This document shows positions 41,692-57,659 of a stretch of 64,000 nucleotides of DNA, piece by piece. The notes below the pieces were generated by a model, which was given only the letters and a program-made list of their open reading frames with translations, searched no databases and was not told where the DNA came from. A program made the position numbers and the translations under genes. How positions within the stretch are numbered: the stretch's first letter is position 1; the number at the start of each line of letters is the position of its first letter. The DNA comes from a bacterium (GTDB lineage: Bacteria; Elusimicrobiota; Elusimicrobia; Elusimicrobiales; UBA9959). The DNA is taken from contig JAJYJH010000001.1 in the NCBI GenBank assembly GCA_021789695.1, positions 62,001 to 126,000 of the forward strand, written 5' to 3'.

Positions 41692-42267
41692 CTATTTATT
41701 AAGTTTTTTTGCCAGGGACTGCCTGGCGCGGAAGAGCAGGGATTCCACTGCGGACACGGAGGTCTCCATGACGGCGGCAATCTCGTCATAGGAGCGGTCC
41801 TCGTAGACCTTGAGCGTCAGTGCCAGGCGCTGGGCTGCCGGCAGCGAGAGAAAGGCCTCCTCGATCTTTTCCCTGGCGCGGGCCCGCTCGTACATGGCCT
41901 CGGGGCCGGAGCCGGCCGGGGCTGCCGGCTCCGCGCCAGCCGCGGCCGCGGCATCCAGACTCAGTTCCCCCCCGCGCGCCTTCTTCCTGCGGGAGAGGTC
42001 CACCGCCAGGTTGTAGGCTATCCTGTACAATATAGTGGAAAGCCTGGCGCCGGGCTTGAGGTCGGACGCGGACCTGTAGAGCCGCAGGAAGGCCTCCTGC
42101 GCCAGGTCTTCTGCGGCGGCGTGGTCGCGCGTATAGCGGAAGAGGAAGTTTATCAGTCGGGCGGAGTGTTCATCCACTATACGGCTGAAGGCTTCCCCGC
42201 TACCGGCGTTGAACTCCGCCAGCAGGGAAAAACCCTCGGGCAGTTCCGGTTTTTGTTTCTCCGACAC
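41692..42267 (-). CDS. ECF sigma factor heading the metal-efflux operon
   Basis: A 191-residue RpoE-like sigma factor. Region 2 (RIVDEHSARLINFLFRYTRD, then EDLAQEAFLRLYR) recognises the -10, and region 4 (LPAAQRLALTLKVYEDRSYD, then EIAAVMETSVSAVESLLFRA) the -35; a 30-residue Ala/Gly/Pro linker separates them. The start is a GTG at 42267 without a strong ribosome binding site. It is followed 52 bases later by the membrane anti-sigma factor, and then by the efflux genes, so the operon probably autoregulates. I cannot identify the -35/-10 used by this sigma factor with confidence. Confidence 0.93.
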   Translation of the reverse strand: MSEKQKPELPEGFSLLAEFNAGSGEAFSRIVDEHSARLINFLFRYTRDHAAAEDLAQEAFLRLYRSASDLKPGARLSTILYRIAYNLAVDLSRRKKARGGELSLDAAAAAGAEPAAPAGSGPEAMYERARAREKIEEAFLSLPAAQRLALTLKVYEDRSYDEIAAVMETSVSAVESLLFRARQSLAKKLNK

Positions 42268-42318: not shown

Positions 42319-42347
42319 TTGAAAAAATGCTTTCTGTGAGCTAGACT
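42319..42347 (+). promoter_or_regulatory. Sigma-70 type promoter of a short plus-strand transcript
   Basis: TTGAAA (42319-42324) and TAGACT (42342-42347) are separated by exactly 17 bp. Transcription would begin near 42354, immediately ahead of the GC-rich structured stretch. Confidence 0.6.
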
Positions 42348-42353
42348 ATAACA

Positions 42354-42440
42354 AGGGGGAGGGTCCCTCCCCGGACGTGGGAAGCAAGGTACAGAAGGGA
42401 CCCGTGCAGAGGGCGGACCAAGTGGTCCGCCCCGATTTTT
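42354..42440 (+). ncRNA. Candidate structured small RNA or riboswitch-like leader
   Basis: A promoter lies upstream and an intrinsic terminator ends this stretch of about 87 bases, which has no ORF. Positions 42361-42368 (GGGTCCCT) pair perfectly with 42396-42403 (AGGGACCC), enclosing a 27-base loop with CGGACGTGGGAAGCAAGG. An alternative local hairpin GGGGAGGG/TCCCTCCCC would compete with it. Such exclusive pairings are common in switches. It matches no family I know: the loop is not the SRP RNA tetraloop and no 6S, TPP, glycine, c-di-GMP, fluoride or guanidine consensus fits. It could be a free RNA or the attenuated leader of the cupin gene, which starts 46 bases after the terminator. Confidence 0.5.
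42411..42440 (+). terminator. Intrinsic terminator before the cupin gene
   Basis: Arms GGGCGGACC (42411-42419) and GGTCCGCCC (42424-42432) close a 4-base loop and are followed, after CGA, by five T. The three-base gap between the stem and the T-run is slightly unusual. Confidence 0.75.
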
Positions 42441-42485
42441 GATAGAATCTACCTGTCTGGATTCGGAGGGTTTACGGGAGGCAAG

Positions 42486-42866
42486 ATGGCCGTCTTCATA
42501 GAGAAGCCCATGCTGGTGCAGGCATCGGGCAACAAACCCAAGGTCATAGAGGAATACATAGGGCGCGCCAATTCCAAGACCACGACCATAAGCGTGGCCA
42601 GGATGGTCAGCCCCGGAGGCTGGGAAGAGCCTCCCCAGGAGCCGCGCTTCACCGAGTACACTCTGGTGCTCAGGGGTATGCTTCGCGTTGAGACTCAGAA
42701 CGGGTCTTTCGACGTCAGGGCGCGCCAGGCCATAATCATGGAGCCCGGAGAGCGCGTCCGTTATTCTACCCCGGAGCCCGAGGGCGCAGAGTATATAGCG
42801 GTCTGTCTGCCGGCCTTTTCCTTTGAGACGGTGCGCCGGGAGGGCGAGACGAATCGGCCGTATTGA
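42486..42866 (+). CDS. Cupin-domain protein
   Basis: A 126-residue single-cupin protein. The core reads FTEYTLVLRGMLRVETQNGS followed by FDVRARQAIIMEPGERVRYS and TPEPEGAEYIAVCLPAFS, typical of small RmlC-like cupins. Cupin metal ligands are normally His and Glu; the histidines are not conserved here, so enzyme activity is doubtful and a binding or regulatory role is possible. The ATG has an upstream GGGAGG. It follows the candidate RNA and terminator, and is in turn followed by its own terminator. It runs opposite to both neighbours. Confidence 0.85.
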   Translation: MAVFIEKPMLVQASGNKPKVIEEYIGRANSKTTTISVARMVSPGGWEEPPQEPRFTEYTLVLRGMLRVETQNGSFDVRARQAIIMEPGERVRYSTPEPEGAEYIAVCLPAFSFETVRREGETNRPY

Positions 42867-55931: not shown

Positions 55932-55970
55932 GGCTAAAATGATAGAAAATTTGGAGCGCGGTTTGCAGGC

Positions 55971-57659
55971 TCAATCGGAAATCTTGACCTTGCGGCCGGC
56001 GCGCTTGGGCAGGATCGGAAGGTCGGGTTTTATTCCCTTGAGCGTTATGATCTTGGAGGCTATCTCGCGGAACGCCGGCGCGGCCGTCTCTCCGCCGTAT
56101 ATCATGCCTTTGGGATTGTCCACTACTACCAGGATCGTGTACTGCGGGTGCTCCATGGGGAAGAAGCCGGCGAAGGAGGCCACGTTCCTGCCGGTCATAT
56201 ACTTGCCGGTCTTAGGATCTATCTTGTTGGCCGTGCCGGTCTTGCCGGAGATGGAGTAGCCGGGGATGTCCGCGTTGCGGCCGGTGCCGGACACCACCAC
56301 GTCGCGCAGTATCGCCCTTACGCGCCTGCTGGTCTCAGGCTTGATGGCCTGGCGGATTACGGTCGGCCCGTTGGCGAAGAGCACTTTGCCTTCGGCGTCG
56401 GTGATGCTGTTGACCAGGCGCGGCGCGTAGAGTTTGCCGCCGTTGGCTACCGCAGAGTAGGCGTCCAGCATCTGCAGCGGGGTGGCCGCTATGCCGTGGC
56501 CGTAAGCGGCCACGGCCAGTTCTATCGGCTTGAACTTATCCATCGGGCGCAGCAGGCCGGCGGATTCGCCCGCGAAACCGAGCCCGGATTTCTCGCCAAA
56601 CCCGAAGGCCTTGACATAAAGATAGAAGTTCTTGATCCCAAGCTTCAGCGCCACCTTGCCCATACCGATGTTGGAGGAATGCTCCATTATCTCCGGTATT
56701 GTAAGCGTCTTTTCCGGCTCGTGGTCGTGGATGGTTACCTTGTCGTTGAAGTGCCAGGCGCCGTTCTCGCAGAAGAAAGAGTCTTTCTCGCTGACCGTGC
56801 CTGTTTCCAGGGCGGCGGACAGCGTGACGGATTTGAAGGTGGAGCCTGGCTCGTAGACCCACTCCACCGGGTCGATCCTGTCCAGGTTGCGCGGCCAGGA
56901 GGACATCGCCAGGATCGCGCCGGAATCGGGGTCCTGCACCAGGGCCATGCCTAGGTCGGCGTGGTAGGCGTCCACCACCTTGCGTATGGCCTCCTGGGCG
57001 AAGTACTGGATGTTCTTGTCTATCGTCAGGTGCAGGTCCCTGGGCTGGGAGCCCTTCTCCTGCTGTCCCTGGAAGATGACGCGGCCGGCCGCGTCGCGCA
57101 CGATCTCGCGGTTGCTGACCCGGCCGCTGAGCACCTTGTCGTAAAGCAGTTCCACGCCGGTCAGGCCCTTGTCGGCGCGGGTGACCCCGATGATGCTGCG
57201 CGCTATGTCCCCGGACGGGTAATAGCGGCTCTGCATCGGCGTCATCGTGACGCCCTTCAGGCCGAGCGCCTTAACGGCCTCGTACTCGTTCCTGCCGATG
57301 TCCTTCTTGACGTAGAGGAAGTTCCTGGCCTGCCGGAACCTCGCCCGGAACGAGGACGGCAGCGAGAGGGCGCGGGAGAGGGCGGCGACGTCCCGGGCCG
57401 GGTCGTCGAGGTCCCTCTTCGAGAGGGAGACGTCCCAGGTCACTATGGACTGTGCCAGCAGGTCGCCGTTGTCGTCGTAGATACGGCCGCGCGGGCCTAT
57501 CTCGGAAACGGTGCGGTTGAATTCCCGCGAGGCGGTCTCAGAAAGTTTTTCGTGTCTGAAGGTCTGCAGCCAAAAAAGCCTGACGCCGATAGCCAGGGAT
57601 GGAAGGACGGCCAGCGCGGCGCAGAACTGTATTCTTGATCGTAAGGTCGGAGATATCAT
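55971..57659 (-). CDS. ftsI: Class B penicillin-binding protein (FtsI/PBP3-like)
   Basis: This septal transpeptidase crosslinks peptide stems. The 562-residue protein has one N-terminal transmembrane segment (QFCAALAVLPSLAIGVRLFW), a dimerisation-type domain (REFNRTVSEIGPRGRIYDDN) and the transpeptidase domain with the SxxK serine in YEPGSTFKSVTLSAALE, SxN in MEHSSNIGMGKVALKLG and KTG in YSISGKTGTANKIDP. There are no PASTA repeats, which fits FtsI more than Spo-type PBPs. The ATG at 57659 has only a weak ribosome binding site, and about 110 bases separate it from ftsL. Confidence 0.95.
   Translation of the reverse strand: MISPTLRSRIQFCAALAVLPSLAIGVRLFWLQTFRHEKLSETASREFNRTVSEIGPRGRIYDDNGDLLAQSIVTWDVSLSKRDLDDPARDVAALSRALSLPSSFRARFRQARNFLYVKKDIGRNEYEAVKALGLKGVTMTPMQSRYYPSGDIARSIIGVTRADKGLTGVELLYDKVLSGRVSNREIVRDAAGRVIFQGQQEKGSQPRDLHLTIDKNIQYFAQEAIRKVVDAYHADLGMALVQDPDSGAILAMSSWPRNLDRIDPVEWVYEPGSTFKSVTLSAALETGTVSEKDSFFCENGAWHFNDKVTIHDHEPEKTLTIPEIMEHSSNIGMGKVALKLGIKNFYLYVKAFGFGEKSGLGFAGESAGLLRPMDKFKPIELAVAAYGHGIAATPLQMLDAYSAVANGGKLYAPRLVNSITDAEGKVLFANGPTVIRQAIKPETSRRVRAILRDVVVSGTGRNADIPGYSISGKTGTANKIDPKTGKYMTGRNVASFAGFFPMEHPQYTILVVVDNPKGMIYGGETAAPAFREIASKIITLKGIKPDLPILPKRAGRKVKISD

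What the first reader, a model, noticed from the sequence alone, without database searches (positions are those of the whole stretch)
42354..42440. Candidate undescribed structured RNA upstream of a cupin gene
A 17-bp-spaced promoter, about 60 bases with an 8-bp perfect stem (42361-42368 with 42396-42403) competing with a local GGGGAGGG/TCCCTCCCC hairpin, and an intrinsic terminator form a complete transcription unit without an ORF. I cannot match it to SRP, 6S or common riboswitch consensus sequences. Mutually exclusive pairings followed by a terminator and a gene suggest either a riboswitch or a small RNA, divergent from the metal operon.
Basis: partly seen in the sequence, partly recalled or inferred. 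Interest (0 to 1): 0.6.

Follow-up and report, generated by a model that had tools for sequence, protein, structure and literature searches.

The report
Pseudoknotted small RNA family in Elusimicrobiota
The 87-base stretch is a conserved, apparently separately transcribed small RNA that folds into a pseudoknot and belongs to a previously undescribed group of related small RNAs in one bacterial lineage; what it binds or regulates is not yet known.

Summary
The promoter, 8-bp stem, local hairpin and terminator are all at the stated places. The "competing" pairings are better read as an H-type pseudoknot: P1 GGGG/CCCC plus P2 GGGTCCCT/AGGGACCC. It was found separately in 18 of 18 homologues from one Elusimicrobiota genus. 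P2 covaries strongly: 6 of 8 pairs have two-sided changes, and 0 of 500 shuffles reach the observed covariation. At least 26 of 32 genomes of the genus carry a member, and a sister genus carries three copies. There are paralogues, some in tandem, under one shared promoter element.

It is not a cupin riboswitch. Downstream genes differ and are often convergent, and the cupin has its own conserved promoter-like element. No Rfam match. Hfq was not detected in 32 genomes.

Longer family members carry purine-rich NRG triplets every 5-6 nt in the loop, resembling TRAP-protein sites, but TRAP was not found in 61 genomes. Best reading: a new family of independent small RNAs, probably protein-binding; the partner is unknown.

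The parts
42319..42347 (+). Promoter of the RNA: TTGAAA, 17 nt, TAGACT, with the family's conserved flanks (CCCTTGAAA and GAGCTA)
   Evidence: same promoter at the relatives and at the paralogues
42354..42440 (+). Small RNA gene (type A member), about 87 nt, start and end inferred from promoter and terminator
42355..42359 (+). P1 5' strand (G tract; four of these pair with 42369-42372, register ambiguous by one base)
42361..42368 (+). P2 5' strand GGGTCCCT, pairs with 42396-42403
42369..42372 (+). P1 3' strand CCCC
42373..42395 (+). Loop L3, purine-rich, ends in the conserved GTACAG motif; much longer in type C relatives, where NRG triplets recur every 5-6 nt
42396..42403 (+). P2 3' strand AGGGACCC
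42411..42441 (+). Intrinsic terminator GGGCGGACC-AAGT-GGTCCGCCC plus T tract; sequence unusually conserved across the family
42437..42448 (+). TTTTGATAGAAT, conserved promoter-like element of the cupin gene; overlaps the T tract of the RNA's terminator
   Evidence: pattern present in 20 of 24 cupin upstream regions, 0 of 1096 other 70-nt windows of the same loci
42486..42866 (+). Cupin-domain protein, 126 aa; neighbour, not a demonstrated target
   Evidence: Cupin_2, 20.8 bits, below the curated cut-off of 27.2
41692..42267 (-). ECF-type sigma factor of the divergent metal-efflux cluster; neighbour only

Best explanation
The locus encodes an independent small noncoding RNA, one of a lineage-specific family. 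RNA polymerase starts at a strong promoter whose -35 region lies in an element largely confined to these RNAs, makes an RNA of about 87 nt that folds into an H-type pseudoknot (P1 inside, P2 closing a purine-rich loop), and stops at an intrinsic terminator whose hairpin also protects the 3' end. It acts in trans, not on the cupin. My committed mechanism is that it works as a protein-binding (sequestering or scaffold) RNA: P2 holds a single-stranded purine-rich loop bearing NRG triplets, most developed in the longer paralogues, and a protein reads those triplets. Shown by sequence comparison: the transcription-unit anatomy, the covarying P2, P1 in type A, the family with a shared promoter, and independence from the downstream gene. 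Inferred: transcription itself, the start site, folding in the cell, trans action and protein binding.
For: Homologues with promoter, core and terminator in the genus; pseudoknot found separately in 18 of 18, 17 of which beat all 60 of their shuffles; P2 with two-sided changes at 6 of 8 pairs and a whole-structure covariation score of 0.263 against 0.141 in shuffles, 0 of 500 reaching it. Paralogues with different cores but the same promoter and terminator; the upstream promoter element matches 28 places in 32 genomes and 24 of them are these RNA genes. Different, often convergent downstream genes. Cupin has its own promoter-like element. AG pairs in L3 recur at lags 5, 10 and 15 in types C and g12 (z 4.1, 4.7, 3.3) and at lag 5 in type A (z 4.9); one g12 copy has 14 NRG triplets at exact step 5, none of 400 shuffles as long. 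Hfq not detected in any of 32 genomes, which lowers a standard Hfq-dependent pairing mode.
Against: No transcript data. Partner unknown: the only ring protein known to me to read such triplets, TRAP, was found in 0 of 61 genomes. The triplet periodicity is not universal: with steps of 5 or 6 only 5 of 14 type C/g12 loops reach P of 0.02 or less, the statistic was chosen after looking, and related sequences inflate z. The window's own loop is short (23 nt), with few triplets. P1 was not found in 8 of 11 type C copies, so the pseudoknot is not a family-wide invariant; P2 is. The P1 swap control is weak (24 of 24 own against 320 of 408 swapped). The covariation alignment was fitted to a model that includes P2, and contains one type B row.
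Confidence: 0.5

Rival explanations
1. An independent trans-acting small RNA that works by base-pairing with mRNAs, for example through the C-rich TCCCTCCCC segment against Shine-Dalgarno sequences, without Hfq.
For: Transcription unit and multi-copy family as above. The segment CCTCCC is complementary to GGGAGG before the cupin start, and such C-rich seeds are common in Hfq-independent sRNAs (recalled).
Against: The C-rich stretch is inside P1/P2 and follows from the pairing. In type C copies that lack P1, for example G016:C45 and G023:C11, it is not kept, while P2 and the purine-rich loop are. No target test was possible.
Confidence: 0.3
2. A cis-acting riboswitch or attenuator controlling the cupin gene by terminator/antiterminator switching.
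For: In the window the order is promoter, RNA, terminator, cupin; pseudoknots are typical of small riboswitches such as preQ1 (start of the abstract of PMC11625349 seen).
Against: Cupin is the next same-strand gene at 6 of 24 type A loci only; elsewhere CstA, SDF symporter, pyruvate kinase, S9 peptidase or ChaN genes lie convergent. Cupin carries its own promoter-like element. No conserved antiterminator pairing was seen by eye.
Confidence: 0.05
3. [quoted passage not shown]
For: Pseudoknotted RNA with its own promoter and terminator, sometimes in tandem.
Against: No ToxN-like gene among the neighbours tested with Pfam; copies in tandem are separate transcription units of different type, not uniform repeats.
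Confidence: 0.02
4. Chance arrangement of G-rich/C-rich sequence with an ordinary terminator; no functional RNA.
For: The single-sequence fold z-score is only -2.10, and similar terminators exist elsewhere in these genomes (low-scoring hits inspected).
Against: Conservation of promoter, core and terminator in 24 type A loci and compensatory changes.
Confidence: 0.03

Closest known systems
TRAP (MtrB, TrpBP, PF02081) binding sites of the B. subtilis trp leader
   Same: Longer family members carry RG-type triplets separated by 2 or 3 nt; [quoted passage not shown]
   Different: Triplets here are CAG, CGG, UAG, AAG and GAG; the RNA is a stand-alone small RNA closed by P2; TRAP was found in 0 of 61 genomes tested (the g12 genomes G091 and G233 were not among them).
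CsrB/RsmZ-type protein-sequestering small RNAs
   Same: Stand-alone, multi-copy, co-regulated small RNAs with repeated short purine motifs (CsrB features recalled).
   Different: No repeated GGA-in-hairpin pattern seen; the motif is NRG at 5-6 nt steps in an open loop. CsrA was not searched for.
preQ1 and similar H-type pseudoknot riboswitches
   Same: Small H-type pseudoknot next to an intrinsic terminator.
   Different: Independent unit, no conserved downstream gene; no Rfam match.
ToxI RNA antitoxins (type III toxin-antitoxin)
   Same: Pseudoknotted noncoding RNA.
   Different: No toxin gene beside the tested copies and no uniform repeat array.

Membership tests
Any Rfam 15 family | Covariance-model match at gathering score | tested here: not met
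   0 hits on the RNA in the window; one non-significant CRISPR-repeat hit on the other strand outside the RNA at E up to 10; 0 hits in 20 relative loci
Cis-regulatory riboswitch of the cupin | Conserved linkage to and co-orientation with the downstream gene | tested here: not met
   cupin next and same-strand at 6 of 24 type A loci; convergent unrelated genes elsewhere
Cis-regulatory riboswitch of the cupin | Downstream gene depends on readthrough | tested here: inconclusive
   cupin has its own conserved promoter-like element, 20 of 24 by pattern; no expression data
H-type pseudoknot RNA | Two interleaved helices conserved in homologues | tested here: met
   18 of 18 type A sequences, P1 of at least 4 bp in 24 of 24, P2 covariation; P1 not found in 8 of 11 type C paralogues
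TRAP-binding RNA | About 11 GAG/UAG triplets with 2-3 nt spacers | tested here: not met
   the window's own loop is 23 nt and has few triplets; up to 14 NRG triplets at step 5 in a g12 copy and up to 8 at steps 5-6 in type C
TRAP-binding RNA | TRAP protein in the genome | tested here: not met
   0 of 61 genomes at E up to 0.1; control B. subtilis positive
Hfq-dependent small RNA | Hfq in the genome | tested here: not met
   0 of 32 genomes; 5 of 14 control genomes positive
Type III toxin-antitoxin RNA | Adjacent ToxN-like endoribonuclease gene | tested here: not met
   Pfam on 4 window proteins around the RNA and 10 neighbours in relatives: none
Bacterial SRP RNA | RF00169 match | tested here: not met
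   no match on this RNA

The most novel reading that the evidence does not exclude
A co-regulated family of RNA decoys in which a pseudoknot or long-range stem closes a loop of NRG triplets at 5-6 nt steps, so that the loop wraps a ring-shaped RNA-binding protein; since neither TRAP nor Hfq was detected, that protein would be a new ring-type RNA-binding regulator of Elusimicrobiota, and these RNAs its antagonists.
Probability: 0.13. Interest if true: 0.8.

Novelty: new variant of a known kind. Interest (0 to 1): 0.55.

Why it matters
Elusimicrobiota are a little-studied phylum and my searches found no paper on small RNAs there. A conserved, multi-copy, co-regulated RNA family in genomes without detectable Hfq gives a concrete entry to post-transcriptional regulation in this phylum, and its triplet-bearing loops give a testable bait for an unknown RNA-binding protein.

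Tried and rejected
Rejected: riboswitch of the cupin (context; cupin's own promoter-like element); known RNA family; SRP RNA; type III antitoxin RNA; Hfq-dependent RNA; TRAP as the partner by Pfam. The 'Actinomycetota' record L066 matched the DNA pattern but has no family promoter or core, so I dropped it. Low-scoring model hits were dropped after inspection as terminator-only: G018:C11, G005:C40, G029:C226, G009:C67, G027:C292, G019:C351, G022:C10, G171, G215, G270, G140, G221, G111, L190-L193 and L195 (L196 is the other strand of L193's place and was not printed). G030:C60 (L020) is a terminator-only DNA hit left out of the alignment. Many further hits between E 1e-4 and 0.1 were not inspected.

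Limits: first-look candidates are scored only in part in large searches (13 per genome, up to 55), so absence outside the genus is not proven. The link to named organisms rests on matching contig lengths between and the record titles. Two literature searches and the listings gave background only; of PMC3071783 I saw one passage, which was not used.

Full report
Observation. The window holds, at the stated coordinates, a promoter-like pair TTGAAA-17-TAGACT (42319-42347), the 8-bp stem 42361-42368/42396-42403, the hairpin 42356-42372 and a 9-bp terminator hairpin 42411-42432 followed by a T tract. No Rfam 15 family matches there at gathering score or at E up to 10 on the RNA. Alone, the sequence folds only moderately better than its shuffles (z -2.10), so the case rests on comparison.

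Homologues. A 106-base DNA query found related places in the same genus. After orientation, 18 sequences including the window's keep promoter, core and terminator. A covariance model, R1, built on them and run on the 32 genomes of the genus extended this: after inspection I count 24 genomes with a type A copy like the one in the window, and two more (G023, G030) with only type C copies, so 26 of 32 have a member. Four of the other six gave no hit and two gave terminators only. In a draw of 294 genomes of the phylum, with few candidates scored per genome, convincing hits outside the genus were only in genus g12 of the same family: two copies in G091 and one in G233, inspected. A search of 20 other-genus genomes of the family with a second model, R2, trained partly on those copies, added no further convincing one.

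Structure. Searching each of 18 sequences separately for an H-type pseudoknot gave the same architecture in all: P1 of 4-7 bp, L1 of 1-3 nt, no L2, P2 of 7-9 bp, L3 of 17-41 nt. In 17 of 18 no shuffle out of 60 did as well; in G003, 5 of 60 did. On an alignment of 35 model matches (one row is a type B copy, and the alignment was fitted to P2), 6 of 8 P2 pairs and 3 of 9 terminator pairs show changes on both sides. The covariation score is 0.263 against 0.141 in shuffles, 0 of 500 reaching it, and sliding the partner by one column drops pairing from 95.3% to 60.1% or less. P1 can form with at least 4 bp in 24 of 24 type A copies, including co-changed versions (GGAGA/TCTCC, GGAGGA/TCCTCC), but swapping strands among sequences also gives 4 bp in 320 of 408 cases, so P1 has weaker support. 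In the window sequence the P2 5' strand can also pair locally, so a kinetic switch is not excluded.

A family, not a single gene. Three types share the promoter and terminator. Type A is the one in the window. Type C has the same P2 (typically GGGTCTC/GAGACCC) around a loop that is usually longer and purine-rich; P1 was found in 3 of 11 type C copies and in both g12 copies run. Type B is a hairpin with the conserved loop CCCAAGTATAAGC(A/C)ACTCGG, 10 copies (the G016 copy divergent), one in the window's own genome (G000:C22:23106-23199). Types B and C stand in tandem in G005, G014, G013 and G020, and G016 has three units in a row. Each unit has its own promoter. The promoter element GSCCNNAVRGNCCTTGAWA, drawn from these genes, matches 28 places in the 32 genomes (the reversed control is far rarer), and 24 of the 28 are these RNA genes; the other four lie without the downstream -10 or core. 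The window's own type A copy deviates from this strict pattern. A looser promoter pattern shows that most of the other listed promoter-like sites of the genus read TTGACA...TCTGCTATAAT, so the RNA genes look separately regulated.

Not cis-acting. The cupin is the next same-strand gene at 6 of 24 type A loci (G000, G007, G024, G028, G012, G003). Pfam on ten next genes shows six type A loci with convergent genes of known kinds: CstA, SDF symporter, pyruvate kinase twice, S9 peptidase, ChaN. Upstream of the cupin in 20 of 24 genomes lies an element like TTTTGRTARAAT, absent from 1096 other windows of the same loci (pattern chosen after viewing). In the window it overlaps the T tract of the RNA terminator (42437-42448). 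So the cupin is probably transcribed on its own.

How it may work. Hfq (PF17209) was not detected in any of the 32 genomes, with 5 of 14 controls positive. In type C and g12 loops AG pairs recur at lags 5, 10 and 15 (z 4.1, 4.7, 3.3 against dinucleotide shuffles), and in type A at lag 5 (z 4.9) (sequences are related, so z is inflated). The g12 copy G091:C10 holds 14 NRG triplets at exact step 5, which none of 400 shuffles matched; allowing steps of 5 or 6, five of 14 loops have P of 0.02 or less and nine do not. This resembles TRAP sites, which are 11 GAG/UAG repeats with 2 or 3 spacers (passage in PMC3913778). TRAP itself was found in 0 of 61 relatives at E up to 0.1, with B. subtilis as positive control; G091 and G233 were not tested. 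I therefore favour a protein-binding small RNA with an unknown partner (about 0.5) over an mRNA-pairing one (about 0.3). The C-rich segment that would be the obvious seed is dictated by P1/P2 and is lost in type C copies without P1.

Literature. No paper in the held library has 'Elusimicrobia', 'small RNA' and 'pseudoknot' together; the 12 titles listed show none on small RNAs of this phylum. That covers open-licence PMC papers only.

Verdict. A real, undescribed, lineage-specific small RNA family; structure well supported, function inferred.

Noticed in passing
G000:C22:23106-23199 (L099): Second family member in the window's own genome, type B: hairpin with the highly conserved loop CCCAAGTATAAGCCACTCGGAG under the same promoter.
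   Followed up: partly
L163 / L104 (G016:C15, about 55960-56385): Three tandem RNA genes of different type, each with promoter and terminator.
   Followed up: partly
whole order, 61 genomes: No RF00169 (small bacterial SRP RNA) match in any of 61 genomes or in the own genome, while 11 of 14 controls ring.
   Followed up: no
L114 (G001:C30:25191-25326): The same promoter precedes a different, longer hairpin-rich stretch ending in AGAAGCCGGGACAACTGTCCCGGCTTCT; possibly another small RNA. No Rfam match.
   Followed up: partly
window 42437-42448 and loci L032-L055: Conserved promoter-like TTTTGRTARAAT about 33-50 nt before the cupin start; distinct from the genus's usual TTGACA/TATAAT promoters.
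   Followed up: partly
L179:3661-3733 (G233): 2dG-II purine riboswitch above its gathering score (67.7 against 60 bits), unrelated to this RNA.
   Followed up: no
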